The notes under the pieces: model-generated
Database searches by the model: none
The model's input: the letters and a program-made list of their open reading frames with translations, nothing else
What the model was told of the DNA's origin: nothing
Shown: positions 3,634 through 62,807 of the stretch, in pieces
Layout of the letters: each line of letters begins with the position of its first letter
Numbering within the stretch: position 1 is the stretch's first letter
IMG/VR virus record: IMGVR_UViG_3300044641_007277
Span: 1 to 64,000 of that record
DNA: 64,000 nt
Strand: one strand, 5' to 3'
Source: a virus
Translations under genes and position numbers: made by a program

Positions 3634-5265
3634 TTATACAGCAGGCTCTTCAGTTGCTGCTCCTGTTTCAACATCTTCATCACCTGGTTTATCACCAGCT
3701 TTCTTTTCTTTCTCTCTTATCATTGCTTTATTTTCTTGCAATTCATCACGAGTAAGATTCATAAAGTTTTCCATAGCAAAATCTAAATCGAAATAAGCAT
3801 CATCTTTTGTCTTCGGAATATTAAGAAGTTCGTTGATAGCAGAAACACGTTTTTGCATAGTTTCAACCTTTCTTTGAGTATCAAAACTATTATCTCTATT
3901 AAATTTTATACCTACACTTGATCTAAAAAGATGATCTCCTTGAAATTCAGGATATTTCAACAATAGTTGTAAAACCAATGGTTTAAGCATTATTTCTTGA
4001 AAACCTGAACGAAGTCTATTTACAAAATTAAAAAATCTAATTTCGTCTCTTTGGATACCTTCAGCACTTGAACTGAAAGTACCTCCTCCACCCTCTCCAA
4101 AACGACCCAATGGGATTTTAGAAGCTCTACGGAGTTTTAATTCAAAGTATTTCAAGAAATCAGGATTAGATAAATCCACTCCCTGTCCACCAATTACCTC
4201 AACATTAGGTGAATTTCCATCCTTTGATGGAAACATAAAATGCTTAAAGAATGGAATAGATGGTCTTCCGTTAATGCTCAATGTTCCATCAGCATCATTG
4301 AAAAATATTTCTTCTTTATAGTTATTAAGAATTTCAGAAAGTTCTTGTTTTGCTTTTTGAGGTGAATTACTTCCGATTGGTATGGTCATTTTCAAGCGAA
4401 ATTGAGCATACATAATATGCCACATGACTTTTGAGTTCTCTATGAGTCTGAGCAAGTTTAATGGTCTTACAAGACGCTCAACATAACTTACTCTGTCCAT
4501 TTGCATATTTTGAGCATATGCAATGTAAATGACAGATGAATCATAAATAACTCTTTCTACATCATTTCCGATTTTTTGAATCCATACAATATATTCTTCA
4601 CCATCTTCACCGACAATAGTTGATAATTGCAAAGTAGCTGGATCTAATTTATTTAACGCAATTACTTCTTCACCTTCTTCATCAGTTACAATTTCAAATG
4701 CTAAAAATCCATCTACAAGATATTGTCTAAATAGATTCCATGCTTTTGTATTATTGTTAAATCCAAATTTAACATACAATTTTCTAAATTCTTCATGAAT
4801 TGTATTTACAATTTCTTCTTTCTTTTCGTCACTTAAAAAAGATTCTAATCCCTTTGTATCTGGATAACAAAACCAATTCTTATCATCATAAACAATAGCT
4901 TCATCTGAAATTGTATCTAATATCTCTACAACCTCATCATTCAAAGAAAATGAACGCAAGAAATCACGTTTAGTAATATAATTAGAATCATATATAGCAA
5001 GTGCTTTTAGACCACCAATATCTTGAATAGCCATAGCAGAAAGAAGTCTTTGATCCCATTGAGCCGTTGAATATCCACCATATACTGAATGACCTATTGC
5101 TCCAGAACCACCTTGATTGGTTTCGGTTTCACCAGCACCTTGTCTACGCTGAATGATTAAATCATCATAATACATCCCAAAAGAAGACAATTTTCTCACA
5201 TTGTCTGCTGGTCCTGATGTAAAACCATAAGTTTTAGCACCGTCTTTAGAAATAAATCCTGCCAT
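3634..5265 (-). CDS. 20: T4 gp20-like portal vertex protein
   Basis: Portal protein, expected to form the dodecameric ring at one capsid vertex through which DNA is packaged and to which the tail attaches. At 543 aa it is close to T4 gp20 (524 aa). Family-like stretches include RPLNLLRLIENSKVMWHIM (about residues 258-276), the region around FFNDADGTL and the conserved run KLRRASKIPLGRF followed by a Gly-rich loop and SSAEGIQRDEIRFFNFV, typical of the gp20 clip/stem region. The C-terminus is acidic and low-complexity. It is followed by a strong terminator and preceded at 19 nt by the conserved gene at 5284-5895, with which it is probably co-transcribed. No classical Shine-Dalgarno is seen before the ATG. 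Confidence 0.9.
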   Translation of the reverse strand: MAGFISKDGAKTYGFTSGPADNVRKLSSFGMYYDDLIIQRRQGAGETETNQGGSGAIGHSVYGGYSTAQWDQRLLSAMAIQDIGGLKALAIYDSNYITKRDFLRSFSLNDEVVEILDTISDEAIVYDDKNWFCYPDTKGLESFLSDEKKEEIVNTIHEEFRKLYVKFGFNNNTKAWNLFRQYLVDGFLAFEIVTDEEGEEVIALNKLDPATLQLSTIVGEDGEEYIVWIQKIGNDVERVIYDSSVIYIAYAQNMQMDRVSYVERLVRPLNLLRLIENSKVMWHIMYAQFRLKMTIPIGSNSPQKAKQELSEILNNYKEEIFFNDADGTLSINGRPSIPFFKHFMFPSKDGNSPNVEVIGGQGVDLSNPDFLKYFELKLRRASKIPLGRFGEGGGGTFSSSAEGIQRDEIRFFNFVNRLRSGFQEIMLKPLVLQLLLKYPEFQGDHLFRSSVGIKFNRDNSFDTQRKVETMQKRVSAINELLNIPKTKDDAYFDLDFAMENFMNLTRDELQENKAMIREKEKKAGDKPGDEDVETGAATEEPAV

Positions 5266-20357: not shown

Positions 20358-21758
20358 TTATTCTTCTGTTTCGTCTGTAATAACAAATGCTTTATTTGCA
20401 TTTACAACCAAACCTAATCTTCGCATCAATGCTCTATTTATAAGAATAGGTGTGCTTTTGCTTGCTCTATCTGTGGGAGAGAATCTAACATTTTTTACAA
20501 GTACATCATTGAAAACTACATCCATTTTAATAACTGGTCTTTCATGTATTTCAGTTCCAACAGCAGTTTTTGAATATCCTACAATATCGTGTACAAATTT
20601 CTTATCTCCTATTGACCACTTTAGTTTTCCATCTTTTTCTTCAACCGAATCGGCATGAATACTACATGATTTGGAACTATTACCAGTATCAAATTTAGCA
20701 ACCATTATTCCAACATTTGGTATTTCCATATTTTCAAGATAACCTACTTCTAAATTATAATATGACCAATTTGATTTATCGGTCACATAATCTATTATTT
20801 TAGATACAATAGGTGAACCTAAAACTTTTGAAATACCTTCAGTCCCAGGTGAAGAGTTCACTTCTAAAATATATGGTTTTTTTGTATTTTTATCAATCAT
20901 TATATCAACACCTGACCAATGACAACCAACTGCTGTCGCCGCTTCAAATGCCAACTCTTCTAGTTCTGGTGTCAATTCATAAGTATCTACGGTTCCACCC
21001 AAAGAATAATTCGTTCTAAAATCATTTTCAACTGATGTTCTTTTCATAGAACCTAAGATAATTTTATTATCTGCTTTTTCAGTTAATGGATTGAATTTTT
21101 TAACCAATGTCTGAATTCTAATGTCAAAATCAGCTTCAATTTTTTCTTGAATTAAAATTTCGCTCTCTGGGTTTAGTTTCTTAATTGTTTGATATACCGA
21201 TTTCAAAGATTGATATGAATCTACAACTGATACTCCAATACCTTGAGTCCCTGAAATAAGTTTTACAATTACTGGGAATTTATTTCCAATAATTTCTAAT
21301 GCTTTATCTATAAATTTTTCATCAGGAACTAAAGAATACTTTGGAACAGGGAGTCCATATTCTTCAAGAATTTGTGAAGTAATATATTTGTTTTCACAAG
21401 TTTTGATTGAATCTAATGAATTTACAATAAAATATCTTGCCTTTTCAAGTTGATAAAATAAACGGCGAGTGTGAGAGTTTTCTATAACCCCCCTTCTAGG
21501 AATGATTGCAGTTGTATCGGGATCAATAAGAATTCTCTGTTCTTTATAGTGTATCAGATGTCCATTGTATACTTTTTCAAGCAAAGCGTTATTTATATTA
21601 ATAACATAACATTCAATACCTCTTTCTTTACATACCTCTTCAAAGGATTTAGTAGTTGAACTACCATTGGCTTTTCCAGTAAAGATAATTATTTTCATGT
21701 CCTTTTGTTTTGATTCATTTAAGAATGAAGTGTAGTCGAGAATATTCTTATTAAACAT
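20358..21758 (-). CDS. RimK-like ATP-grasp ligase fused to RimB-like aspartic protease domain
   Basis: 466 aa from the ATG at 21758; an in-frame TTG at 21770 is a weaker start. Residues about 20-315 are a RimK-type ATP-grasp ligase: FPVIVKLISGTQGIGV, the LIQEKI strand, SMKRTSVENDFRTNYSLGG and YILEVNSSPGTEGI, all key ATP/Mg positions of ribosomal protein S6 glutamate ligase. Residues about 340-460 match the PF05618 'ATP-dependent zinc protease'/RimB family, a retropepsin-like fold with FDTGNSSKSCSIHA (catalytic-type Asp near 357), ERPVIKMDV and SPTDRASKSTPILINRALM. In bacteria RimK and RimB are separate proteins that tune S6 glutamylation. The N-terminus (LDYTSFLNES) looks like a T4 capsid-targeting sequence. 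It has a GATATATA box. Confidence 0.85.
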   Translation of the reverse strand: MFNKNILDYTSFLNESKQKDMKIIIFTGKANGSSTTKSFEEVCKERGIECYVININNALLEKVYNGHLIHYKEQRILIDPDTTAIIPRRGVIENSHTRRLFYQLEKARYFIVNSLDSIKTCENKYITSQILEEYGLPVPKYSLVPDEKFIDKALEIIGNKFPVIVKLISGTQGIGVSVVDSYQSLKSVYQTIKKLNPESEILIQEKIEADFDIRIQTLVKKFNPLTEKADNKIILGSMKRTSVENDFRTNYSLGGTVDTYELTPELEELAFEAATAVGCHWSGVDIMIDKNTKKPYILEVNSSPGTEGISKVLGSPIVSKIIDYVTDKSNWSYYNLEVGYLENMEIPNVGIMVAKFDTGNSSKSCSIHADSVEEKDGKLKWSIGDKKFVHDIVGYSKTAVGTEIHERPVIKMDVVFNDVLVKNVRFSPTDRASKSTPILINRALMRRLGLVVNANKAFVITDETEE

Positions 21759-21841: not shown

Positions 21842-22240
21842 TTATTTTATCTTAACTTCTATAAGTTTATGTTTCTCCTTTTTCTTTGGAATTCTAAGTT
21901 CAAGGACACCATTTTCATAAGAAGCATCGATATTCGTTGAATCTACATCTCGATTAAGTTTGAACTTTCGCTCATATTTATCTTGATGATCTTCGCTAGA
22001 GTATTTTTTAGATTTATATCTCAATTCCTTTTTTGCTTCAATTTTAAGATATGAATCCTCAAAAGTGATTGAAATATCTTCCTTTTTAACTCCAGGTATT
22101 TCGGAAAGAATTACCCATTCATTTTCCTTCTCAATTATATCTGTTGAAGGAAGGTAAGTATGAGACTCAAGATTTTGGTTGAGATACATACGTTCTGCCA
22201 AATCCATTTGGCGCAGTAGTGATGTGAATGTGTCTAACAT
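21842..22240 (-). CDS. Hsp20/alpha-crystallin small heat-shock protein
   Basis: 132 aa, ATP-independent holdase expected to bind unfolding proteins in the host cytoplasm. The alpha-crystallin domain spans about residues 33-126: VILSEIPGVKKEDISITFED, YERKFKLNRDVD, the diagnostic ENGVLELRIPK near 108-118, and a C-terminal VKIK tail resembling the IxI motif. Small size is normal for the class. sHSPs occur in several T4-like phages, where stabilisation of virion or host proteins during infection is proposed. A perfect 16-bp palindrome lies 24-39 bp upstream of the start, and a terminator follows the stop. Confidence 0.92.
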   Translation of the reverse strand: MLDTFTSLLRQMDLAERMYLNQNLESHTYLPSTDIIEKENEWVILSEIPGVKKEDISITFEDSYLKIEAKKELRYKSKKYSSEDHQDKYERKFKLNRDVDSTNIDASYENGVLELRIPKKKEKHKLIEVKIK

Positions 22241-24376: not shown

Positions 24377-26014
24377 TTATCCTTTCACTTGAACGATTTC
24401 AGCACTTACAACCCAATATATTGTCTTTCCATTTTGTCCTGTTACTGTAAAAACTGGTCCACCATTTGAAGTATTAGCAGTCACATTAATATCCCAGTTA
24501 GAATCATCTTCGGCTATAACTGTCTTTGAAACTGTCCCAACTAAAGCAACACTACCTGCTAATGAAATTCTATCCATAACGAAACTTAAAATATATCCAG
24601 CAGATTCTCCATCAGCATCAGTTCTTCTTGCACTACAAACAGCGTGAACAGTCCAAGTAGTATCACCTGGTAAAGAAAGGTATTGTGAACTACCATCCAT
24701 AAAAAGATCTGTTGGTGTATTATCGGTAGTCGTATTCCTTAAAATAACCTTCATAGATTGAGCATCACCAGTTTCTGCAAAATATCCAGAAGAATGATTT
24801 ATACTACCATATTCTGTTCCTTTTGCTCCATAACCTAATGCTACAGAATATTGTCCTGTTGCTGTGTTTTCTCTACCTCCAACAATAGTAGTATTGTTTC
24901 CACTTGCTACTTGAGTTGAAAGTGCTCTTTGTCTTTGTAAATCTACAGCATATGAACCTCTTTTATTTCCACCTGTTGATGTGCCATCGGGAAGTGCAGC
25001 TAATATGGCACCTATTGTTTTAGGTTGTATTACAATATCTCCTGCTGGAGAAACAACATCAACAAGAAGTTGAGAAGCATGCACTGTATTATTTGGTGAA
25101 CTTGTATTTTCAGTTGTTGTAAAACCATTCAAATCACCTTGATTACCCTGATTTCCTTGATTTCCTTGATTACCCTGATTTCCTTGACGACCTTGATTAC
25201 CCTGATTACCATTAGTACCACTATCGCCTTGATTACCTTGGAAACCATCAATACTTTGAGGTCCTTGTGTACCTACAGTTCCTTGTCTTCCTTGAAATCC
25301 TTGACGACCTTGATTACCTTGATCACCTACATTACCTTGATTACCCTGACGACCTTGATTACCTTGCTGTCCTTGATTTCCTTGATTTCCATCAATACTT
25401 TGCGGACCCTGTCTACCTTGATTACCCTGCTGTCCTTGATTTCCTTGTCCACCCTGTTGTCCTTGATTTCCTTGTCGCCCTTGATTTCCTTGGTTGCCTT
25501 GATTGCCTTGATTTCCTTGAGGTCCTTGTCTTCCTAATAAACCTTGAGCACCAGAATCACCTTTTAGTCCTTGAAATCCTCTTAAACCTTGAACGCCTTG
25601 AAGACCTCGAACCCCTTGATCTCCATCTTGACCTTGAATACCTTGAAATCCTTGAGTTCCACGAACACCTTGAGAACCTTGAGTTCCAAGAGAACCTTGT
25701 CTTCCTTGCATACCTTGAATACCACGAATTCCCTGTGAACCTTGAATACCTTGAATTCCTTGTAAACCACGAACACCTTGATTACCTTGAGAACCTTGAA
25801 TACCTAATAATCCTTGAATCCCCTGTGTTCCTTGAGTTCCTAGAATACCTTGAGAACCCTGTGTTCCAGTTGTTCCTTGTATACCTCGGATACCTTGCGT
25901 TCCTTGTACACCTTGAGAACCTTGTGTTCCTAGATTACCTTGCAAACCTATCCCAGTGGGTCCTTGTACACCTTGTGTTCCTTGTACGCCTTGCGTTCCT
26001 TGTGCTCCGTCCAT
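24377..26014 (-). CDS. Collagen-like tail fibre with YadA-like head
   Basis: 545 aa. Residues 2 to about 295 are almost uninterrupted Gly-X-Gln/Gly-X-Arg triplets (GTQGVQGTQG), able to form a collagen triple helix. Residues about 300-545 are globular: a QPKTIGAILAALPDG segment, then GGRENTATGQYSVALGYGAKG and INHSSGYFAETGDAQSM, a YadA-head-like repeat pattern, then a beta-sandwich ending WVVSAEIVQVKG. The trimer head should project from the shaft and contact the host or an attachment point. Proline is scarce, so stability must come from Gln/Arg rather than hydroxyproline. It has its own GATATATA box and is probably followed by co-transcription with 23951-24361. Confidence 0.85.
   Translation of the reverse strand: MDGAQGTQGVQGTQGVQGPTGIGLQGNLGTQGSQGVQGTQGIRGIQGTTGTQGSQGILGTQGTQGIQGLLGIQGSQGNQGVRGLQGIQGIQGSQGIRGIQGMQGRQGSLGTQGSQGVRGTQGFQGIQGQDGDQGVRGLQGVQGLRGFQGLKGDSGAQGLLGRQGPQGNQGNQGNQGNQGRQGNQGQQGGQGNQGQQGNQGRQGPQSIDGNQGNQGQQGNQGRQGNQGNVGDQGNQGRQGFQGRQGTVGTQGPQSIDGFQGNQGDSGTNGNQGNQGRQGNQGNQGNQGNQGNQGDLNGFTTTENTSSPNNTVHASQLLVDVVSPAGDIVIQPKTIGAILAALPDGTSTGGNKRGSYAVDLQRQRALSTQVASGNNTTIVGGRENTATGQYSVALGYGAKGTEYGSINHSSGYFAETGDAQSMKVILRNTTTDNTPTDLFMDGSSQYLSLPGDTTWTVHAVCSARRTDADGESAGYILSFVMDRISLAGSVALVGTVSKTVIAEDDSNWDINVTANTSNGGPVFTVTGQNGKTIYWVVSAEIVQVKG
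25131..26011 (-). repeat. 9-nt collagen-coding repeat tract, about 293 residues
   Basis: In-frame Gly-X-Gln triplets of the fibre at 24377-26014. The tract is less homogeneous than those in the 2261-aa fibre and includes Arg and Leu in the variable positions. Confidence 0.9.
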
Positions 26015-47987: not shown

Positions 47988-48260
47988 ATGGCAAACAAAA
48001 TCGTAAAAACCTTTGAAGAGTTTCTTTCTATTGAGATTGAAAATTCTGATGTCCATTTACATTTTAATGGTTCTGAAGAACCTAAAATGATTGAACCTGA
48101 AACAATGGGTACTCAAGATGAAATCATCATTGATAGTCCAACTATTGCATTGACACCTAAATCTCACATAGAATATGGTGAAGAAGAAATGGATTCTGAT
48201 GAAGAAGAGTATAAAGAAGAGGAAGAAGAAAGCGGAGAAGAAGATTCTGATGAAGAATAA
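47988..48260 (+). CDS. Acidic protein with T4 internal-protein-like N-terminus
   Basis: 90 aa. IVKTFEEFLSIEIEN (residues 5-19) closely resembles the T4 internal-protein targeting sequence MKTYQEFIAE, with possible cleavage after SIE or EIE. The rest is acidic, ending in a run of Glu/Asp/Ser (residues about 65-90). A proteolysed, packaged internal head protein is the best guess. Strong GATATATA box upstream and a bidirectional terminator right after the stop. Confidence 0.65.
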   Translation: MANKIVKTFEEFLSIEIENSDVHLHFNGSEEPKMIEPETMGTQDEIIIDSPTIALTPKSHIEYGEEEMDSDEEEYKEEEEESGEEDSDEE

Positions 48261-50660: not shown

Positions 50661-53600
50661 TTAACTTGAAATAAAGATACTATGTGAATTACCTACGCTA
50701 ACATGCTTCCAATTTGTAAGCGTTCCTATTTGAACGGGGGATGATAATGTTGTTACGCCACCATTACCCAGTTGCCCTGAAGTATTTAATCCCCAGCCCC
50801 ATAATGTACCATCGGTTTTAATTGCCATAGTATGACTATTATTTGCAGAAACACTTTGCCAATTTGTGAGTGTTCCTATTTGAACTGGGGATGATAAATT
50901 TGAAAGCCCACCTGTACCTAATTGTCCAGACCCATTAAACCCCCAGCCCCATAGGGTACCATTTGTCTTTATAGCCATTGTATATAATTGACCACAAGAA
51001 ACACTTTGCCAGTCTGTAAGTAAACCTACTTGCGTTGGATTTAAAAGAAGTGAAGATGCCCCTAATCCAAGCTGACCAAGATTATTTTGACCCCAACCCC
51101 ATAGAGTCCCATCTGTTCTAATTGCCATAGTATGATTAGCACCTCCGCCACCTCCAGCTGAAACACTTTGCCAATTTGTAAGCGTTCCTATTTGAACTGG
51201 AGATGATGAATTTGAAACCCCACCTGTACCTAATTGTCCTGATCCACCAAAACCCCAGCCCCATAGGGTACCATTTGTTCTTATTGCCATTGTATGTGTA
51301 TCCCCTGTTGAAACACTTTGCCATATTGTCACTGTACCTACTTGAACTGGAGATGAATATGATGTAGTATTATTCGTTCCTAACCTACCTGATCCATTAG
51401 ACCCCCAGCCCCATAGGGTACCGTCGGTTCTTATAGCCATAGAATGTTGAGAACTTGTAGATATTTTAGACCAACTTGTTAATGTACCTACTTGAGTAGG
51501 TGATGACCTTATAACTAAATCGTTTAGCCCTAATTGACCTGAACTATTTAAACCCCATGACCAAAGGGTACCATCCGTTTTAATAGCTAATGTATGTTCA
51601 TTACCTGCATATATAGATGACCAATCTGTTAATGTTCCAACTTGAACTGGGGATGACGTTAAAGTTCTTATATTACCTGTAAGTAATACATTATTACCAG
51701 TAGCATATATTTCATTAGATGTATTAATTGCTACAGTATGACTCCCAGCTGCAGATACATTCTGCCAATTAGTAGATGTTCCTATTTGAACTGGAGATGA
51801 AATTGAAGTGTTAGTTCCATCTCCTAATTGGAAAACAGAATTATCTCCCCAGCCCCATAGACTACCATCGGTTTTTATTGCCATGGTATGTGATATTTTC
51901 GTTGAAACTTTTGACCAATCTGTTAGCGTTCCTATTTGAACTGGAGACGAGTAAGTTGTCTTATTTCCAGTTCCTAATTGTCCTGATGAATTTTCACCCC
52001 AGCCCCATAGGGTACCATCGGTTTTGACAGCCATTGTACTACTCAAATATGAAGAAGCAACTGACCAATTTGTAAGTAAACCTATTTTACCAAGTATTGT
52101 ATTATTTAAATCATCAGAACCTATTTCATTTATAGAATTACTACCCCATCCCCATAGAGTTCCATCTACCTTAACTGCCATACTATGACTATCACCTGCT
52201 GAAACACTTTGCCAATTTGTAAGTGTTCCTATTTGTACTGGAGATGAATAAGTTGTGGTATCGCTTGTACCCAATCTACCTAAGAGATTATTACCCCATC
52301 CCCAAAGAGTCCCGTCTGTTTTAATTGCCATAGTACGACTATCATTAGATGATACTTTTGACCAATTTGTAAGCGTTCCTATTTGAACTGGTAAAGAATA
52401 TGTTGTAGTATTATTCGTTCCAAGTTGTCCTAATGAATTAAATCCCCAGCCCCATAGACTACCATCTGTCTTTATAGCCATAGTGTGATTAGATGTTTCA
52501 GTAGCCGATACACTCTGCCAATTTGTAAGCGTTCCTATTTGAACGGGGGATGATACTGAATCTGTTGGTCTTCCTACATAAAAACCCGCAGTATAAATTT
52601 CATTAGATGTATTAATTGATACTACATTAAGATTACCAGTATCTATACTACTCCAATTTGTAAGCGTTCCTATTTGTACTGGGGAAGATACTGATGTTCC
52701 CATTAAACCTATAAAATCTCCTCCCCAACTCCATAGGGTACCATTTGTTTTAATAGCCATTGTATAACTTTCACCTGCTGAAATACTTTGCCAATCTGTA
52801 AGCGTTCCTATTTGAACTGGAGATGATATTGATGTTAAACTACTATTTCCTAATTGTCCTAAACTGTTTAGACCCCATCCCCATAGGGTACCATCAGTTT
52901 TGATTGCCATTGTATGACGACTGCCTGTCGAAATATTTTGCCAATCATTAAGTGAACCGATTTGAACTGGAGACGAATAATATGTTATATTTCCAGTTCC
53001 TAATTCCCCATAAAAATTACCACCCCATCCCCATAGAGTTCCATCTGTTTTTATAGCCATTGTATAACTTAAACCCGCTGAAACATTTTGCCAATTTGTA
53101 AGCGTTCCTATTTGTACTGGAGATGAGTAAGTTGTTGTGTTTCCAGTTCCTAATTGTCCTACAGTGTTTTGACCCCAACCCCATAGACTACCATCTGTCT
53201 TTATAGACATTGTATAAAAATTTCCACCAGAAACACTCTGCCAATCTGTAAGTGTTCCTATTTGAACTGGAGATGATATTGATGTTAAACTACTATTTCC
53301 TAATTGTCCTAAACTGTTTAGACCCCATCCCCAAAGTGTACCATTGGTTTTAATAGCCATTGTATGACTAATACCAGCATAAACATTCTGCCAATCTGAA
53401 AGTGCTCCTATTTGAACTGGAGACGAATAAGTTGTTGTGTTTTCAGTTCCTAATTCTCCTGATGTATTGTTACCCCATCCCCATAGAGTTCCATCTGTTT
53501 TTATAGCTAATGTGTGTGTAGATCTCCTCGAAGAAGCACTTAACCATGTTGTTAGAGTCCCAACTTGAATTAATAAAGTGCCTAATAAAGTCTCGGAACC

Positions 53601-54881
53601 AAGTTTACCCGAAGCGTTACTCCCCCATCCCCATAGAGTTCCGTCTGTTTTTATAGCCATACTATAAAATTGACCACAGGAAACACTTTGCCAATTTGTT
53701 AGTAAACCTATTTGAACTGGAGACGAATAAGTTGTTGTGTTTCCAGTTCCTAATTGTCCTGATGAATTTTCACCCCAGCCCCATAGGGTACCATCGGTTT
53801 TTATAGAAATAGTATGGTTAGTTCCACCTGAAACACTTTGCCAATTTGTTAGTAAACCTATTTGAATAGGAGATGAGTATGTTGTAGTATTATTCGTTCC
53901 TAATTGTCCTGATGCATTTAAGCCCCAGCCCCATAGGGTACCATTTGTTCTTATTGCCATTGTATAATTATTACCTGCTGATATACTCTGCCAATTTGTA
54001 AGCGTTCCTATTTGAACTGGGGATGATATTGATGTTAAACTACTATTTCCTAATTGTCCTGATGTATTTAATCCCCAACCCCAAAGAGTACCATTTGTTC
54101 TTATTGCCATCGTATAACTTCTACCCGCTGAAACACTTTGCCATATTGTTACTGTTCCTACTTGAACTGGAGAGCTTGTAGATGTAGTAGGTCTACCTAT
54201 GAGATTAGATGCACCAGCACTATAAATTTCATTTAGTGTATTAATCGCAATAGTATAATTAGTTCCTAAAGCTACGCTTCTCCAATTTGTAGAACCTCCT
54301 ATTTGAACTGGAGACGATATTGATACTATGGTACCTCTACCTAATTGACCTGATGTGTTTAGCCCCCATCCCCAAAGGGTTCCATTAGTTTTTATAGCCA
54401 TTGTATGACTAACACCAGCATAAACATTCTGCCAGTCCGTTAATACACCTACTTGAATCGGAGAAGATGTTGATGTAGTATTACTCCTCCCTTGTTTACC
54501 AGCCGTATTACTACCCCAAGCCCAAAGAGTACCATTAGTTCTTATAGCCATTGTATAATCTGCCCCAGCTGAAACACTTTGCCATCCAGTAAGCGCACCT
54601 ATCTGGATTGGAGAAGAAGGGCTTACAAATCTATTATTATTTCCCAACTGACCGCTACTATTTGTACCCCATCCCCATAGTGTACCATTAGTTTTAATAG
54701 ACATTGTAAATTGATTACCAGCCGAAACACTTTGCCAATTTGAAAGATTATCTATTTTTGATAATTTAACCATTATGGTTTCATCACCCTTTTGTCCATA
54801 TAAGCTTGAACCTGTTGTAGAGAGATATTTATTTATTATTTCAACTATTTTTCTGGCTTGAATTATAATATCCTTTATCAT
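50661..54881 (-). CDS. Giant RCC1-repeat beta-propeller protein
   Basis: 1406 aa. The first 48 residues are a helical leader (IIIQARKIVEIINKYL). Then about 50-residue RCC1-type repeats follow to the end, each of the form NWQSVSAGNxYTMAIKTDG then TLWGWGxNxxGQLG then SSPVQIGTLT. I count 27 complete repeats and a partial C-terminal one (NWKHVSVGNSHSIFISS), which could close a blade by the usual Velcro arrangement, giving 28 blades or four seven-bladed propellers. Repeats 4, 15 and 21 are divergent (INTSNEIY instead of IKTDGTLWGWG). A secretion signal is absent. Neighbours are fibre proteins and a fibre chaperone, so it is probably a virion adhesin or fibre tip. Confidence 0.85.
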   Translation of the reverse strand: MIKDIIIQARKIVEIINKYLSTTGSSLYGQKGDETIMVKLSKIDNLSNWQSVSAGNQFTMSIKTNGTLWGWGTNSSGQLGNNNRFVSPSSPIQIGALTGWQSVSAGADYTMAIRTNGTLWAWGSNTAGKQGRSNTTSTSSPIQVGVLTDWQNVYAGVSHTMAIKTNGTLWGWGLNTSGQLGRGTIVSISSPVQIGGSTNWRSVALGTNYTIAINTLNEIYSAGASNLIGRPTTSTSSPVQVGTVTIWQSVSAGRSYTMAIRTNGTLWGWGLNTSGQLGNSSLTSISSPVQIGTLTNWQSISAGNNYTMAIRTNGTLWGWGLNASGQLGTNNTTTYSSPIQIGLLTNWQSVSGGTNHTISIKTDGTLWGWGENSSGQLGTGNTTTYSSPVQIGLLTNWQSVSCGQFYSMAIKTDGTLWGWGSNASGKLGSETLLGTLLIQVGTLTTWLSASSRRSTHTLAIKTDGTLWGWGNNTSGELGTENTTTYSSPVQIGALSDWQNVYAGISHTMAIKTNGTLWGWGLNSLGQLGNSSLTSISSPVQIGTLTDWQSVSGGNFYTMSIKTDGSLWGWGQNTVGQLGTGNTTTYSSPVQIGTLTNWQNVSAGLSYTMAIKTDGTLWGWGGNFYGELGTGNITYYSSPVQIGSLNDWQNISTGSRHTMAIKTDGTLWGWGLNSLGQLGNSSLTSISSPVQIGTLTDWQSISAGESYTMAIKTNGTLWSWGGDFIGLMGTSVSSPVQIGTLTNWSSIDTGNLNVVSINTSNEIYTAGFYVGRPTDSVSSPVQIGTLTNWQSVSATETSNHTMAIKTDGSLWGWGFNSLGQLGTNNTTTYSLPVQIGTLTNWSKVSSNDSRTMAIKTDGTLWGWGNNLLGRLGTSDTTTYSSPVQIGTLTNWQSVSAGDSHSMAVKVDGTLWGWGSNSINEIGSDDLNNTILGKIGLLTNWSVASSYLSSTMAVKTDGTLWGWGENSSGQLGTGNKTTYSSPVQIGTLTDWSKVSTKISHTMAIKTDGSLWGWGDNSVFQLGDGTNTSISSPVQIGTSTNWQNVSAAGSHTVAINTSNEIYATGNNVLLTGNIRTLTSSPVQVGTLTDWSSIYAGNEHTLAIKTDGTLWSWGLNSSGQLGLNDLVIRSSPTQVGTLTSWSKISTSSQHSMAIRTDGTLWGWGSNGSGRLGTNNTTSYSSPVQVGTVTIWQSVSTGDTHTMAIRTNGTLWGWGFGGSGQLGTGGVSNSSSPVQIGTLTNWQSVSAGGGGGANHTMAIRTDGTLWGWGQNNLGQLGLGASSLLLNPTQVGLLTDWQSVSCGQLYTMAIKTNGTLWGWGFNGSGQLGTGGLSNLSSPVQIGTLTNWQSVSANNSHTMAIKTDGTLWGWGLNTSGQLGNGGVTTLSSPVQIGTLTNWKHVSVGNSHSIFISS
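50664..54740 (-). repeat. RCC1-coding tandem repeat array (about 150-nt unit)
   Basis: About 27 imperfect 135-165-nt units, some nearly identical over long stretches (for example near 51940-52030 and 53700-53800; 52800-52900 and 53240-53340), suggesting recent expansion or exchange within the gene. Confidence 0.85.
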
Positions 54882-56021: not shown

Positions 56022-59000
56022 TTATACTACTCTAAATTGTCCACTTGAACTTACAACAACCCAAGTTGTATTTGTTACTATACATACAATCTCAATAGCA
56101 CCATGTGATGTTATTCTTTCTATATATCCACCTGTACCAAGTGTTGTAGGTAAGGATTGGAATTGTATTTGCTGACCTGCATTTTGAGCAATTTTATACC
56201 CAAGTCCACTTATATCAACAATCCTAAATGAATTACCTACACTTGCTGTTGAAGGCAAAGTAAATGTCAATTGACTTGCAGCAGTAAGAGAATCTGAAAT
56301 ATAATTTGTATTTGCTACTATTGTAGTATTCGTAGTTACAGCAATCCATCCACTACTTCCTCCAGATGGACCTTGATTACCTTGAACACCTAATATACCT
56401 TGGATACCTTGAACTCCTTGAGTTCCCTGATTGCCTTGGTTGCCTTGAGCTCCAACATTACCTTGGTTGCCTTGAGCACCTTGCGTTCCTTGAACGCCTT
56501 GATCGCCCTGAGTACCTTGATTACCTTGTGTACCTTGATTACCTTGGTTGCCTTGAGCACCTTGGGTTCCTTGAACGCCTTGATCGCCCTGAGTACCTTG
56601 ATTACCTTGTGTACCTTGGGTTCCTTGAGTTCCTTGTGGACCCTGAGTACCTTGATTTCCTTGGTTACCTTGAGTTCCTTGAGTACCTTGGTTACCTTGA
56701 TTACCCTGAGCACCAACATTGCCTTGATTTCCTTGGTTGCCTTGATTACCCTGAGCACCAACATTGCCTTGATTTCCTTGGTTGCCTTGTCTTCCTTGAA
56801 CTCCTTGAGTTCCTTGAGTACCTTGCACACCTTGAGTGCCTTGGTTACCTTGGTTTCCTTGATTACCTTGTCTACCCTGAGTACCTTGAACTCCTTGAGT
56901 ACCTTGGTTACCTTGGTTTCCTTGATTTCCTTGGTTGCCCTGAGCACCAACATTGCCTTGATTACCTTGATTACCCTGAGCACCAACATTGCCTTGAGTA
57001 CCCTGTGTCCCTTGGACTCCTTGATTACCTTGGGTTCCCTGAGTTCCTTGAGTACCTTGATTACCTTGATTACCCTGAGCACCAACATTGCCTTGATTAC
57101 CTTGGTTTCCTTGATTACCTTGGGTTCCCTGAGTTCCTTGAGTACCTTGATTACCTTGGGTTCCCTGAGTTCCTTGAGTACCTTGAGTACCTTGAGTACC
57201 CTGAGCACCAACATTGCCTTGATTCCCTTGGTTTCCTTGATTACCTTGAGTACCTTGAGTTCCTTGCACACCTTGAGTACCTTGGTTTCCTTGGTTACCT
57301 TGTCTACCCTGTACACCCTGTACACCCTGTACACCCTGTACACCCTGTGTACCCTGAGTTCCTTGGTTACCTTGAGTTCCTTGAACACCTTGCGTTCCTT
57401 GCGTTCCTTGCGTTCCTTGATTTCCTTGATTTCCTTGGTTACCCTGAGTTCCTTGAACACCTTGCGTTCCTTGGTTACCTTGTCTACCCTGTACACCCTG
57501 TACACCCTGTACACCCTGTGTACCCTGAGTTCCTTGGTTACCTTGAGTACCTTGAACACCTTGCGTTCCTTGGTTACCTTGGTTACCTTGCACTCCTTGA
57601 TTTCCTTGATTTCCTTGGTTACCCTGAGTTCCTTGTGTACCTTGATTACCTTGGTTTCCTTGATTGCCCTGAGTACCTTGAGTACCTTGAGTCCCTTGTG
57701 TACCTTGAACACCTTGAGTACCTTGAACACCTTGCGTTCCTTGGTTACCTTGGTTACCTTGCACTCCTTGAGTACCCTGAGTACCTTGCACTCCTTGAGT
57801 CCCTTGAGTACCTTGCACTCCTTGAGTACCCTGAGCTCCTTGAGTACCTTGCACTCCTTGAGTACCTTGATTCCCTTGGTTGCCCTGATTACCCTGGGTT
57901 CCTTGAACACCTTGAGTACCTTGGTTTCCTTGGTTTCCTTGGTTACCTTGGTTGCCTTGAGTACCTTGGGTTCCTTGAACACCTTGAGTTCCTTGATTAC
58001 CTTGATTGCCTTGGTTGCCTTGATTACCTTGGGTTCCTTGGGTTCCTTGAATCCCCTGAGTACCTTGAGCACCTTGGGTTCCTTGGTTACCTTGGTTACC
58101 TTGAGTACCTTGGGTTCCTTGAACACCTTGAGTTCCTTGATTGCCTTGGTTGCCTTGATTACCTTGATTACCTTGATTGCCTTGATTGCCCTGTACACCT
58201 TGAGTACCTTGGTTGCCCTGAGTACCTTGAACTCCTTGATTACCCTGATTACCTTGGTTACCTTGATTACCCTGAGCACCTTGAGTGCCCTGTACACCTT
58301 GAGTGCCTTGATTACCTTGGTTACCCTGAGTACCTTGAACTCCTTGAGTTCCCTGATTACCCTGATTACCTTGGTTACCTTGGGTTCCCTGAGTGCCTTG
58401 AACTCCTTGAGTTCCCTGATTACCCTGATTACCTTGGTTACCTTGAGTTCCCTGAGTGCCTTGAACTCCTTGAGTTCCCTGATTACCTTGGTTGCCCTGG
58501 GTTCCTTGAACTCCTTGAACTCCTTGAATTCCTTGTGTACCCTGACTTCCCTGGTTACCTTGTGGACCTTGAGTACCTGTTGGACCTAAAGTTGTAACTA
58601 CATAAGAATAATGTATAGTACCTTCGGTATAAAATGTAACACTTCTATTTTGATTATCTAAATTATTCAGATATAAATTAAGTATTAACCTATCTGTTAA
58701 ATTTAGAGAAGCAGTTGTTGCTACGGCATTTGCCTTTACTTCAACTGGTGTAGTATTATTTACTGACCATCCAATAGCAACTGCATCCGAAGTAAACAAC
58801 AATGTAGTAGTTGCTCCATCATATTTAGATACAGTAAAGTAATACTCTAAATCATCATTTTCAGTATTTTTAGTCCAATAGATATAAGCGTGCCAAAGAC
58901 CATTTGGAATCAAAATAACATTCGGATCCCCAGAATTTGTGATCCAGCCTGAATCAACAAGAACATTTTGTTGATTAGCAGTCAAATTGGTTACTACTGT

Positions 59001-62000
59001 CGTTTGTCCAGCAGTAGTTGTAGATTTTGATAATTGAAGATAAGGACTCGGTGTTTGTGATACAGAAGAATTTAGGAAATAGCTTATACCTCCAGAAATT
59101 CCACTTATACCTTCATTTCCTTGGGTACCTTGAACTCCTTGAACCCCTTGGACACCTTGTGTACCTTGAGTTCCTTGGTTACCTTGATTACCCTGATTTC
59201 CTTGATTACCTTGGTTACCTTGGTTACCTTGGTTGCCCTGAACGCCTTGTGTACCTTGAGTTCCTTGATTGCCTTGGTTACCCTGATTTCCTTGATTACC
59301 TTGAGTACCTTGAACCCCTTGAGTTCCTTGATTACCTTGGTTACCCTGATTTCCTTGATTACCTTGAGTACCTTGAACCCCTTGAGTTCCTTGATTACCT
59401 TGATTTCCTTGGTTGCCCTGAACGCCTTGTGTACCTTGAGTTCCTTGATTACCTTGGGTACCTTGGGTTCCTTGATTGCCCTGATTACCTTGGTTACCTT
59501 GATTACCTTGGGTTCCTTGGGTTCCTTGAACGCCTTGGTCACCCTGAGTACCTTGGTTGCCTTGGTTGCCTTGGTTGCCTTGGTTGCCTTGATCACCTTG
59601 AGTACCTTGGGTTCCATCATAACCCTGATCACCTTGAGTACCTTGGGTTCCATCATAACCCTGATCACCTTGAGTACCTTGGGTTCCATCATAACCCTGA
59701 TCACCCTGAGTACCTTGGTTACCTTGAGTTCCATCATAACCCTGATCACCTTGAGTACCTTGAGTTCCATCATAACCCTGATCACCTTGAGTACCTTGGA
59801 TTCCATCATAACCCTGATCACCTTGAGTACCTTGGGTTCCATCATAACCCTGATCACCTTGAGTTCCTTGAACGCCTTGATCGCCCTGAGTACCTTGATT
59901 GCCTTGGTTTCCTTGCACGCCTTGGTCTCCCTGTGTCCCTTGATTACCTTGGTTACCTTGGTTGCCTTGGTTACCTTGATTACCTTGAGATCCAACGTTA
60001 CCTTGATTACCTTGAGCTCCAATGTTACCTTGGTTGCCCTGGTTACCTTGGTTACCTTGAGTACCTTGGTTACCCTGAGTACCATCATAACCCTGATCAC
60101 CCTGAGTACCTTGAGTTCCATCATAACCCTGATCACCTTGAGTACCTTGGTTGCCTTGATTACCTTGAGTCCCTTGGTTACCTTGGTTGCCTTGAGTCCC
60201 TTGTGTACCTTGTACACCCTGCGTTCCTTGGTTTCCTTGGTTGCCTTGATTACCTTGAGTCCCTTGTGTACCTTGTACACCCTGCGTTCCTTGGTTACCT
60301 TGCACACCTTGATTACCTTGGGTTCCTTGATTACCTTGATTTCCTTGATTTCCTTGGTTACCTTGGTTACCTTGAGTACCCTGATTTCCTTGGGTGCCTT
60401 GAGTTCCTTGGTTACCCTGATTTCCTTGGGTGCCTTGAACTCCTTGATCTCCTTGCGTACCTTGATTACCCTGATTGCCTTGGGTACCTTGAACACCCTG
60501 ATCTCCTTGGGTTCCTTGAGTACCCTGAACACCTTGATCTCCTTGGGCCCCTTGAGTACCTTGTACACCTTGAGTACCTTGAGTACCTTGGTTGCCTTGA
60601 TTTCCTTGAGTCCCTTGAACCCCTTGAGACCCTTGGCTACCTTGAGTACCCTGAACACCTTGATCTCCTTGTGTACCTTGGTTTCCTTGATTACCTTGGG
60701 TTCCCTGAGTACCTTGGTTTCCTTGATTACCCTGGTTACCCTGGGTTCCTTGAACACCTTGAGTACCTTGAGTACCTTGGTTGCCTTGATTGCCCTGATT
60801 ACCCTGGTTACCCTGGGTTCCTTGAACACCTTGAGTACCTTGAGTACCCTGTTCACCATTCAATCCATTAAAACCAGAAATACCTTGTAAACCAGTTATA
60901 CCCTGAATACCCTGTGTCCCTTGTGGACCCTGAGTACCTTGATTTCCTTGGTTTCCTTGGTTACCCTGTCTTCCTTGGTTACCTTGGTTACCTTGGTTAC
61001 CTTGAGTACCCTGTATGCCTTGAGTTCCTTGAGTTCCTTGATTCCCTTGGTTACCCTGGTTCCCTTGATTACCTTGAACCCCCTGTGTTCCTTGATTCCC
61101 TTGGTTACCTTGATTTCCTTGATTCCCTTGGTTACCTTGGTTACCTTGGTTACCTTGAGTTCCCTGATTACCTTGAGTTCCCTGAACACCCTGTGTTCCT
61201 TGAGCACCATCAAAACCTAAAGTCCCTTGAACACCTTGCGTACCTTGAGCACCATCAAAACCTAAAGTCCCTTGAACACCTTGCGTACCTTGAGTACCAT
61301 CAAAACCTAAAGTCCCTTGAACACCTTGAGCACCTTGAGTACCTTGATTACCTTGAACTCCCGTATCACCTTGTGTACCCTGGACACCTTGAGCACCTTG
61401 AGCACCATCTAATGGAGCTGGATAATCTATCCATAGTCCAGTGGAAGTTTGATAACCCAAATATGCACCATCAGCTGGTGTTGTTATTGTAACATCATTT
61501 AAATCATCTAAATTAATAGTAGTAACCGATTCTCCTCCACCAGAAGAAAGGCTTCGTATTAATCCACCTTGAATAAAAATCGCATCACTACCACTTGATA
61601 AATCAGTTGCCCCACCTCTTACTACTAGATACCCAAGAAAAACAGCATTTTGTAAAGTTATAGGGGATTCAACAAATGCTTCATAAGGAAGTCCATTTAA
61701 AGCAGAACCTAAACTTGAATACTCCTTAACACCATAATAAACAATGATATCACTAGCTGAATCTGGTATTTGAAATAATCTCTGTACAGACCATTTATTA
61801 GTAGATACAGTAGCTAATGTTCCATCTCCATCATCATAACTTGCTGGATCTATATCTGTGTAAAAAGATCCTGAATTATTATCATATACAAATCCACCAC
61901 TTCCGTCTGCATACATCCTACATAAACTTGAAGGTGTACTTGGTGATAATGTAGTTATATCGGGTTCAAATGGATCAGTCCAATAATTATTACCTATAAT

Positions 62001-62807
62001 ATATGCTTTACCCGATGCTCTGTCTATTCTGAGATTATTACCATTTGCAGATATATTTAAACCTTCTTTTTTAATAGGTCCAAGTGTATTTAAGATTTCA
62101 TATACCTTATGATTTACACCATATGTAGTAAATGAATCTGTTGTTACTAAATTTACATTTGTAAGATTAATATGACATAAGTGACCGATAACAATATAAT
62201 TCTTATAATCACTATCTGTAAATGGTGTTGTTTTTTGTTGTAGAGTTCCAGTACTATCAATATAAATATAAGTAAATGGGTCAGTTAATAAATTCGTGAT
62301 AGTTTGGTTTACAAATGCATTCCATTTTACTTCGGTAATATCTTGTGAAAGTTCCCCTGAAACAATTGAGTGTGTGACTATTTGACCTTGACCTTCTGAT
62401 ATGTTAAATGTAGTTCCACCGATTGTAGCACTTAAAAACCCCCCTGTTTTTATACCTGTAATTTCTATTCCTTCTATATTATTATTCTCTTCTACTAACC
62501 ATTTATTATCCCCATAGTATACAATAGTTATACCCTGACCTTTACCATCCCATAAATACTGCGAATTACCTTGAATAGTAGCACCACTATCACTACCATT
62601 AGGTTGAATTATAATATTACTTACATAATTTGCAGTATCTAATATATGTAACTTATAGCCAAAAGAAATTATACTCCCAGACGCTGTAATCTGAGGTAGC
62701 GTTAATATAGAACCCCCAGCATTAGAACCAGTTACTCGAACTAATTCATAAAGTTGATTTATACTGAGATTACCAGTTGACCAATTATATGTATTTTTAT
62801 ACCCCAT
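56022..62807 (-). CDS. 2261-aa collagen-like tail fibre
   Basis: Layout: residues 1-466 globular and beta-rich, ending with a typical pre-shaft segment (NLDDLNDVTITTPADGAYLG); 467-1232 Gly-X-Gln collagen triplets; 1233-1406 a beta-sandwich (VILIPNGLWHAYIYWTKN, LNLTDRLILNLYLNNLD); 1407-2149 collagen again; 2150-2261 a C-terminal domain (IAVTTNTTIVANTNYI, GNSFRIVDISGLGYKI). X is mostly Thr, Asn, Val, Asp or Ala and Y almost always Gln; proline is nearly absent. At 0.286 nm per residue the two shafts would be about 219 and 212 nm. No signal peptide. The N-terminus probably attaches to the baseplate and the C-terminal domain trimerises or contacts the host. A GATATATA box lies 66 nt upstream. Confidence 0.9.
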   Translation of the reverse strand: MGYKNTYNWSTGNLSINQLYELVRVTGSNAGGSILTLPQITASGSIISFGYKLHILDTANYVSNIIIQPNGSDSGATIQGNSQYLWDGKGQGITIVYYGDNKWLVEENNNIEGIEITGIKTGGFLSATIGGTTFNISEGQGQIVTHSIVSGELSQDITEVKWNAFVNQTITNLLTDPFTYIYIDSTGTLQQKTTPFTDSDYKNYIVIGHLCHINLTNVNLVTTDSFTTYGVNHKVYEILNTLGPIKKEGLNISANGNNLRIDRASGKAYIIGNNYWTDPFEPDITTLSPSTPSSLCRMYADGSGGFVYDNNSGSFYTDIDPASYDDGDGTLATVSTNKWSVQRLFQIPDSASDIIVYYGVKEYSSLGSALNGLPYEAFVESPITLQNAVFLGYLVVRGGATDLSSGSDAIFIQGGLIRSLSSGGGESVTTINLDDLNDVTITTPADGAYLGYQTSTGLWIDYPAPLDGAQGAQGVQGTQGDTGVQGNQGTQGAQGVQGTLGFDGTQGTQGVQGTLGFDGAQGTQGVQGTLGFDGAQGTQGVQGTQGNQGTQGNQGNQGNQGNQGNQGNQGNQGTQGVQGNQGNQGNQGNQGTQGTQGIQGTQGNQGNQGNQGRQGNQGNQGNQGTQGPQGTQGIQGITGLQGISGFNGLNGEQGTQGTQGVQGTQGNQGNQGNQGNQGTQGTQGVQGTQGNQGNQGNQGTQGTQGNQGNQGTQGDQGVQGTQGSQGSQGVQGTQGNQGNQGTQGTQGVQGTQGAQGDQGVQGTQGTQGDQGVQGTQGNQGNQGTQGDQGVQGTQGNQGNQGTQGTQGNQGTQGNQGNQGNQGNQGNQGTQGNQGVQGNQGTQGVQGTQGTQGNQGNQGNQGTQGVQGTQGTQGNQGNQGTQGNQGNQGTQGDQGYDGTQGTQGDQGYDGTQGNQGTQGNQGNQGNQGNIGAQGNQGNVGSQGNQGNQGNQGNQGNQGTQGDQGVQGNQGNQGTQGDQGVQGTQGDQGYDGTQGTQGDQGYDGIQGTQGDQGYDGTQGTQGDQGYDGTQGNQGTQGDQGYDGTQGTQGDQGYDGTQGTQGDQGYDGTQGTQGDQGNQGNQGNQGNQGTQGDQGVQGTQGTQGNQGNQGNQGNQGTQGTQGNQGTQGTQGVQGNQGNQGNQGTQGVQGTQGNQGNQGNQGNQGTQGVQGTQGNQGNQGNQGNQGTQGTQGVQGNQGNQGNQGNQGNQGNQGNQGTQGTQGVQGVQGVQGTQGNEGISGISGGISYFLNSSVSQTPSPYLQLSKSTTTAGQTTVVTNLTANQQNVLVDSGWITNSGDPNVILIPNGLWHAYIYWTKNTENDDLEYYFTVSKYDGATTTLLFTSDAVAIGWSVNNTTPVEVKANAVATTASLNLTDRLILNLYLNNLDNQNRSVTFYTEGTIHYSYVVTTLGPTGTQGPQGNQGSQGTQGIQGVQGVQGTQGNQGNQGTQGVQGTQGTQGNQGNQGNQGTQGVQGTQGTQGNQGNQGNQGTQGVQGTQGNQGNQGTQGVQGTQGAQGNQGNQGNQGNQGVQGTQGNQGTQGVQGNQGNQGNQGNQGNQGNQGTQGVQGTQGTQGNQGNQGTQGAQGTQGIQGTQGTQGNQGNQGNQGNQGTQGVQGTQGTQGNQGNQGNQGNQGTQGVQGTQGNQGNQGNQGTQGVQGTQGAQGTQGVQGTQGTQGVQGTQGTQGVQGNQGNQGTQGVQGTQGVQGTQGTQGTQGTQGNQGNQGNQGTQGTQGNQGNQGNQGVQGNQGNQGTQGVQGTQGNQGTQGTQGVQGVQGVQGRQGNQGTQGVQGTQGNQGNQGNQGTQGTQGTQGVQGTQGNQGTQGTQGVQGVQGVQGVQGRQGNQGNQGTQGVQGTQGTQGNQGNQGNQGNVGAQGTQGTQGTQGTQGTQGNQGTQGTQGTQGNQGNQGNQGNVGAQGNQGNQGTQGTQGTQGNQGVQGTQGTQGNVGAQGNQGNQGNVGAQGNQGNQGNQGNQGTQGVQGTQGRQGNQGNQGNQGTQGVQGTQGTQGVQGRQGNQGNQGNVGAQGNQGNQGNQGNVGAQGNQGNQGTQGTQGNQGNQGTQGPQGTQGTQGTQGNQGTQGDQGVQGTQGAQGNQGNQGTQGNQGTQGDQGVQGTQGAQGNQGNVGAQGNQGNQGTQGVQGIQGILGVQGNQGPSGGSSGWIAVTTNTTIVANTNYISDSLTAASQLTFTLPSTASVGNSFRIVDISGLGYKIAQNAGQQIQFQSLPTTLGTGGYIERITSHGAIEIVCIVTNTTWVVVSSSGQFRVV
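56363..58588 (-). repeat. C-proximal collagen-coding tract of the giant fibre
   Basis: About 742 residues of Gly-X-Gln. The 9-nt coding unit gives long near-identical runs at the DNA level and spurious open frames on the other strand. Confidence 0.92.
59113..61408 (-). repeat. N-proximal collagen-coding tract of the giant fibre
   Basis: About 766 residues of Gly-X-Gln, including a subregion of nine GYDG interruptions (about 59610-60135) and three LGFDG interruptions near the N-terminal start (61205-61320). Confidence 0.92.
59605..60140 (-). repeat. GDQGYDGTQG higher-order repeat inside the collagen tract
   Basis: Nine copies of GDQGYDG[TI]QG; several adjacent copies are 36 nt apart and almost identical in DNA. 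Tyr-Asp replaces the usual X-Gln, making a chemically distinct patch in the shaft. Confidence 0.85.

What the first reader, a model, noticed from the sequence alone, without database searches (positions are those of the whole stretch)
20358..21758. RimK glutamate ligase fused to a RimB-like protease in one phage protein
The N-terminal half has the RimK ATP-grasp motifs and the C-terminal 120 residues match PF05618/RimB, which in bacteria is a separate protein regulating RimK and S6 glutamylation. The fusion couples writer and modulator or eraser in one chain. With IF-3 in the same genome this points to ribosome modification as an infection strategy.
Basis: partly seen in the sequence, partly recalled or inferred. 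Interest (0 to 1): 0.8.

Follow-up and report, generated by a model that had tools for sequence, protein, structure and literature searches.

The report
Phage polyglutamate enzyme with head-packaging tag
A large phage encodes one protein that looks able both to add and to cut glutamate chains on proteins, and a short front-end tag shared by most of its relatives suggests it is packed in the virus head and injected into the bacterium, possibly to retune its ribosomes.

Summary
The 466-aa protein (20358-21758, minus strand) is a RimK ATP-grasp ligase joined to a C-terminal retropepsin-like RimB/RloA domain. Both active sites are intact: the ligase Mg/ATP residues and the protease Asp357. It is not a one-off: viral contigs hold hundreds of relatives. 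Two corrections. First, RimB-RimK fusions are already known in bacteria (RimBK; JBC 2025), but all 12 I examined have RimB first. The phage order is reversed. Second, IF-3 is really in this genome but in only 4 of 20 records carrying this gene or its RimK-only relative, so it is weak support for a ribosome target. The new finding lies outside the ligase and protease. A 15-residue N-terminal tag (MFNKNILDYTSFLNE|S) matches T4's capsid-targeting sequence plus prohead-protease site. A strict form occurs in 17 of 28 fusion clusters (0.10 expected from shuffling) and in 1.5% of other genes of these phages. The same cleavage context sits in the phages' own capsid proteins, and every near-complete record has the matching protease. 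Best reading: a head-packaged, injected polyglutamylation writer plus eraser/modulator. Packaging and substrate (S6 or other) are inferred, not shown. New variant of a known kind.

The parts
20358..21758 (-). RimK-RimB (K-B order) fusion gene, 466 aa
21714..21758 (-). residues 1-15 MFNKNILDYTSFLNE: capsid-targeting-like tag, predicted prohead-protease cut E15|S16; disordered in the model (mean pLDDT 42-46 over residues 1-20)
20760..21698 (-). residues 21-333: RimK pre-ATP-grasp and ATP-grasp domains; Mg ligands D285, E299, N301 conserved, also R88, R214, R240, R248, N250
20376..20762 (-). residues 333-461: retropepsin-like RimB/RloA domain
20688..20690 (-). catalytic Asp357 of the DTG motif
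   Evidence: alignment to RloA2
21842..22240 (-). Hsp20-type small heat shock gene directly upstream, same neighbour in L005 and L006
29735..30265 (+). translation initiation factor IF-3 gene (context only)
47988..48260 (+). 90-aa acidic protein with tag-like start MANKIVKTFEEFLSIE and end GEEDSDEE; candidate phage substrate or core protein; homologue in G001 at 124328-124576
   Evidence: no Pfam match
3634..5265 (-). T4-type portal protein gp20 (places the phage among T4-like myoviruses)
   Evidence: PF07230 E=5e-66

Best explanation
The gene encodes a bifunctional polyglutamylation enzyme. The RimK half ligates glutamate onto protein C-termini or makes poly-alpha-glutamate; the RimB half trims the chain and/or stimulates the ligase. 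The N-terminal 15 residues are a capsid-targeting propeptide: they draw the enzyme into the prohead core, the phage S77 prohead protease cuts after LNE, and the mature enzyme is ejected into the host with the DNA, where it acts from the first minutes. Confidence by step: two intact enzymatic folds, shown by sequence and model (0.9); glutamate is the ligated residue (0.75, inferred); the tag is a capsid-targeting and cleavage sequence (0.65, inferred from pattern and context); host ribosomal S6 is a main substrate (0.35, inferred by analogy).
For: Folds and active sites. Mg ligands D248/E260/N262 and poly-Glu contacts R64, R189, N262 of Pseudomonas RimK (contact residues from PMC10092738; alignment; Mg-ligand roles from general ATP-grasp knowledge) map to D285/E299/N301, R88, R214, N301. 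In the RimB half, two conserved Arg (R407, R431) fall where RloA has polyglutamate-coordinating Arg (PMC12239564; mapping by spacing, inferred). Tag: strict [FYW]xx[FYWM][LIVM]xE within the first 30 residues in 17 of 28 clusters (70% identity), 0.10 expected from shuffling, 17 of 1125 other ORFs of the six genomes; the residue after E is A or S in 14 of 17. It matches T4 IpII/IpIII, read here as MKTYQEFIAE|A; there residues 4 and 7 target, 8 and 10 allow cleavage, and the prohead protease cuts after L/I-x-E (PMC9026906). gp23 of the same phages has LNE|S (G001, G003) or FLSE|A (Mosig, Melnitz) at its likely propeptide end, as T4 has FLTE|A. S77 protease present in 18 of 18 records above 130 kb. 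The fusion lies 5-11 kb from that protease in 6 of 17 fusion-bearing records (positions), and a gene that reads as gp23 is within 4 kb in 8 of 43 loci. YerA41 homologue found in virions by LC-MS/MS (PMC7354516).
Against: No experiment on this protein. The YerA41 virion preparation held 63 proteins including many replication enzymes, so carry-over is possible, and the YerA41 homologue lacks the strict tag. Seven of 28 clusters fail even the relaxed tag, among them the L117/L118/L132 clade, which has a different N-terminus. In the window clade and pelagiphages the gene sits among replication or unrelated genes, not head genes. Homologues share ancestry, so the Fisher p overstates independence. 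One other tagged protein looks like an endolysin, so the tag may not mean 'internal head protein' in every case. The window record is a 65-kb fragment in which no S77 protease was seen. The one bacterial RimBK assayed did not glutamylate S6.
Confidence: 0.55

Rival explanations
1. A non-packaged, early/middle-expressed auxiliary enzyme that modifies host ribosomal protein S6 (or free poly-Glu pools) after synthesis in the cell; the N-terminal tag does something else, such as docking to another phage protein.
For: In pelagiphage Mosig the gene sits in a replication cluster, next to the translation-repressor gene and near the DNA polymerase gene, and YerA41 g112 is middle-expressed; cyanophage RimK genes without any tag exist.
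Against: The tag is kept over wide divergence with the prohead-protease cleavage context, and in several clades the gene is in the head cluster.
Confidence: 0.25
2. The enzyme works on phage proteins during head assembly: it lengthens or trims Glu-rich tails of acidic prohead-core proteins, tuning core charge or disassembly.
For: A very Glu-rich protein with a tag-like start lies directly upstream in the L119/L122/L124/L125/L132 loci; the window and G001 each have an acidic tagged protein ending in GEEDSDEE or DGEEDEE; T4 gp67 is a comparably acidic core protein; RimB cleaves polyglutamate runs, internal ones included (PMC11957791).
Against: No such protein found in Mosig or Melnitz; outside one clade it is not adjacent; RloA-type proteases spared genome-encoded acidic stretches (PMC12239564).
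Confidence: 0.15
3. The ligase adds another amino acid or makes a small metabolite (LysX/MptN/CofF-like), and the retropepsin domain is only structural.
For: The MptN profile scores nearly as high as the RimK subfamily profile and the S6-ligase equivalog cut-off is not met (105 against 331); substrate-side residues S68, H215 and R216 of RimK are not conserved.
Against: Fused RimB-type protease with intact Asp and conserved basic residues points to poly-Glu chemistry.
Confidence: 0.15

Closest known systems
RimBK hybrid of Desulfotalea psychrophila and Flavobacteriales/Rhodobacterales (PMC11957791)
   Same: RimB-type retropepsin and RimK ATP-grasp in one chain; protease domain active on poly-Glu
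   Different: RimB is N-terminal there, C-terminal in phages; no N-terminal tag; bacterial chromosomal genes
Separate RimK and RimB of Pseudomonas
   Same: Same two activities, which form a complex
   Different: Two genes, in some species with rimA; c-di-GMP stimulates RimK there
Cyanophage 'ribosomal protein S6 glutaminyl transferase' (phrog_2599) and Melnitz RimK
   Same: Phage RimK
   Different: No RimB domain; the cyanophage genes have no N-terminal extension, the Melnitz one has a tag
T4 internal proteins IpI-III and Alt
   Same: N-terminal propeptide removed by the prohead protease, head-packaged and injected; Alt modifies a host protein
   Different: No shared catalytic domain; packaging of the phage fusion is inferred only

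Membership tests
RimK family alpha-L-glutamate ligase (TIGR00768 subfamily) | Score above curated subfamily cut-off and ATP-grasp fold | tested here: met
   150.5 bits against 143.4; Z about 30 to RimK structures
RimK family alpha-L-glutamate ligase (TIGR00768 subfamily) | Mg/ATP ligands D, E, N | tested here: met
   D285, E299, N301 invariant in 28 homologues
S6--L-glutamate ligase (equivalog NF007764) | Score above the equivalog cut-off | tested here: not met
   105.2 against 331 bits
S6--L-glutamate ligase (equivalog NF007764) | Glutamylates S6 | not testable with these tools
   no assay
RimB/RloA retropepsin-like peptidase (PF05618) | Fold of RloA/Lpg0085 and retropepsins | tested here: met
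   Z 15.5-16.8 to RloA and Lpg0085, about 8.8 to HIV protease
RimB/RloA retropepsin-like peptidase (PF05618) | Catalytic DTG | tested here: met
   D357-T358-G359
RimB/RloA retropepsin-like peptidase (PF05618) | Pfam gathering score on the single sequence | tested here: not met
   18.1 against 27 bits; 15 of 28 relatives match at E<0.01, best 4e-9
Bacterial RimBK hybrid | RimB domain N-terminal to RimK | tested here: not met
   Order reversed; 12 of 12 bacterial fusions examined are B-K
T4-type capsid-targeted internal protein | N-terminal propeptide with aromatic/hydrophobic pair and L/I-x-E cleavage site | tested here: met
   YTSFLNE|S; T4 YQEFIAE|A
T4-type capsid-targeted internal protein | Phage encodes the S77 prohead protease | tested here: inconclusive
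   Not seen in the 65-kb window fragment; present in 18 of 18 related records above 130 kb
T4-type capsid-targeted internal protein | Found cleaved inside the virion | not testable with these tools
   Only the YerA41 homologue is reported in virions (PMC7354516)

The most novel reading that the evidence does not exclude
A whole lineage of large T4-like phages, pelagiphages included, delivers a preformed polyglutamylation writer-eraser from the capsid to reprogram the host ribosome (or another Glu-tailed host protein) at the start of infection, the translation counterpart of T4 Alt acting on RNA polymerase.
Probability: 0.3. Interest if true: 0.87.

Novelty: new variant of a known kind. Interest (0 to 1): 0.62.

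Why it matters
If right, it gives a concrete, quickly testable case of a virion-injected protein modifier aimed at polyglutamate chemistry in widespread aquatic phages, and a cleavable packaging tag by which other injected effectors of these phages could be listed. It would also give the reverse-order fusion a setting distinct from the bacterial one.

Tried and rejected
(1) IF-3 as a linked partner: in only 4 of 20 records. (2) The fusion as unique to one phage: rejected, hundreds of viral stretches. (3) Phage-type fusion as a common bacterial gene: a scan of 84,980 species genomes with phage-specific patterns gave 9 loci. One (L233) is an ordinary RimK, four are small contigs that look viral and carry the full fusion or a fragment of it, and four are Flavobacteriales/Bacteroidetes proteins with a degenerate RimK half. 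The scan uses phage-like motifs, so diverged bacterial K-B fusions could be missed. (4) YerA41-like relatives in IMG/VR: none found. (5) Function of other tagged proteins by PHROGs: mostly unknown, one endolysin-like. (6) The fold search with the whole model was filled by the RimK half; the C-terminal domain had to be folded alone (then 96-105). (7) Literature: no paper in the library on phage RimK-RimB fusions or on their packaging was found.

Full report
What is there. The minus-strand frame 20358-21758 encodes 466 residues. The window belongs to a 65.7-kb IMG/VR viral record with a T4-type portal (PF07230), so it is a fragment of a larger T4-like myovirus. Residues 21-333 are RimK: PF08443 E=1.2e-34 and TIGR00768 just above its cut-off; the model aligns with Pseudomonas and E. 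coli RimK at Z about 30. Residues 333-461 are a RimB/RloA-type retropepsin. The single sequence is below Pfam's threshold, but the family profile finds the solved RloA2, RloA and Lpg0085 chains at E about 1e-9, and the domain folded alone (pLDDT 89.5) matches them at Z 15.5-16.8 and HIV protease at about 8.8.

Active sites. From the alignment with P. aeruginosa RimK and the residue list of PMC10092738, D248, E260 and N262 (Mg ligands in ATP-grasp ligases, from general knowledge of the fold) map to D285, E299 and N301, all invariant in 28 homologues. Poly-Glu contacts R64, R189 and N262 are kept; S14 is Thr; S68, H215 and R216 are not kept. The protease DTG is at 357-359. Of the RloA residues that hold polyglutamate (PMC12239564), two Arg have conserved counterparts, R407 and R431 (mapping by spacing: inference). 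Both halves therefore look active; activity itself was not testable.

How common. Among GenBank phages the full K-B architecture occurs in Pelagibacter phage Mosig and Yersinia phages YerA41 and GN1; Melnitz and cyanophages have RimK without RimB. The phage type is nearly absent from 84,980 species genomes, within the limits of motif-based scanning.

Order of domains. [quoted passage not shown] I examined 12 bacterial fusions from samples of 295 Bacteroidia and 240 Alphaproteobacteria genomes; all are B-K. The phage fusion is K-B, so it most likely arose independently.

The N-terminal tag. Ahead of RimK strand 1 the phage proteins have an extension of about 20 residues that cyanophage RimK lacks. 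Its core, [FY]xx[FY][LI]xE|[AS], recurs across proteins only 35-45% identical: YTSFLNE|S (window), FWSFLNE|A (L067), FSQFLNE|A (L088), FRSFITE|E (L141), FKNYLEE|A (Mosig). Read from the T4 record, IpII and IpIII begin MKTYQEFIAE|A. In T4, residues 4 and 7 of that peptide govern targeting and 8 and 10 cleavage, and gp21 cuts after L/I-x-E (PMC9026906). A ten-residue sequence of this kind suffices to package foreign proteins (PMC10229621, PMC7697877). A strict pattern was found in 17 of 28 clusters, against 0.10 expected from shuffling the same N-termini and 17 of 1125 other ORFs in the six genomes; a relaxed pattern gave 21 of 28. In the window and in Mosig the fusion is the only ORF with the strict tag in the first scan. 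The predicted propeptide ends of the major capsid proteins in these phages carry the same context (LNE|S in G001 and G003, FLSE|A in Mosig and Melnitz), as does T4 gp23 (FLTE|A). All 18 related records above 130 kb encode an S77 prohead protease. In six of 17 fusion-bearing records the fusion gene is 5-11 kb from it (positions) and in 8 of 43 loci a gene that reads as gp23 is within 4 kb. The tag is disordered in the model, as expected of a removable peptide.

Virion evidence. The YerA41 homologue, listed as 'ribosomal protein modification protein', is middle-expressed and marked as phage-particle-associated by LC-MS/MS (PMC7354516). This is suggestive only: that preparation also contained many replication enzymes, and the YerA41 protein lacks the strict tag. 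The link between g112 of the paper and the annotated gene YerA41_066 is by function name and neighbours (ribonucleotide reductase genes g109-g110), not by a printed cross-reference.

Mechanism. Most likely a bifunctional polyglutamylation enzyme that is packaged, trimmed after LNE and injected. What is shown: domain identity, intact residues, domain order, recurrence of the tag and of the matching protease. What is inferred: glutamate as substrate, packaging, injection and target. S6 is the natural candidate by analogy, but the S6-ligase equivalog cut-off is not met and the only assayed hybrid did not modify S6. Phage acidic proteins are a second candidate. IF-3 occurs here but in only 4 of 20 records and adds little.

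Verdict. Observation confirmed; interpretation partly supported; the fusion as such is a new variant of a known kind. The more surprising part is the likely head-packaging tag, which makes the idea of an injected translation modifier directly testable in a cultured pelagiphage.

Noticed in passing
L226:3263-4474, L227:3377-4588, L228:3263-4444, L229:1295-2476: Flavobacteriales/Bacteroidetes MAGs encode 393-403 aa proteins with a degenerate RimK half (ATP-grasp core largely lost) and a phage-type DTGN retropepsin domain; possibly domesticated from phage.
   Followed up: partly
L007:7262-7843 (also L119, L122, L124, L125, L132): An extremely Glu-rich protein (21-49% E) with tag-like start (KILSFEEFS in most) lies directly upstream of the fusion in one jumbo-phage clade; comparable in acidity to T4 gp67.
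   Followed up: partly
window 47988-48260 (+): 90-aa acidic protein with tag-like N-terminus and C-terminal GEEDSDEE; one homologue in G001.
   Followed up: partly
window 50661-54881 (-): 1406-aa protein made largely of RCC1 repeats (PF00415 E=2e-234), unusual in a phage; perhaps a tail or receptor-binding propeller.
   Followed up: no
window 24377-26014 (-): Collagen-repeat tail fibre gene near the fusion (PF01391 E=1.6e-43).
   Followed up: no
L076:5480-5707 and about nine similar loci: A 59-76 aa protein (EKIQVLLSxEDLxxLxxKIxKxAL...SHYVR, possibly ribbon-helix-helix) is conserved directly downstream of the fusion in one clade.
   Followed up: no
L018:11018-11920, L019:3887-4972, L021:9572-10504, L033:2267-3082, L106:5435-5881, L104:3707-3982: Many unannotated phage proteins carry the same N-terminal tag; a list of candidate internal or injected proteins for these phages.
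   Followed up: partly
L016:1333-2211: Cyanophage S-RIM32 RimK-only gene lies three small genes downstream of the major capsid gene, yet has no tag.
   Followed up: no
window 56022-62807: A 2261-aa frame overlaps very long frames on the other strand (743, 729, 614 aa), the mark of a repetitive, compositionally biased tail protein.
   Followed up: no
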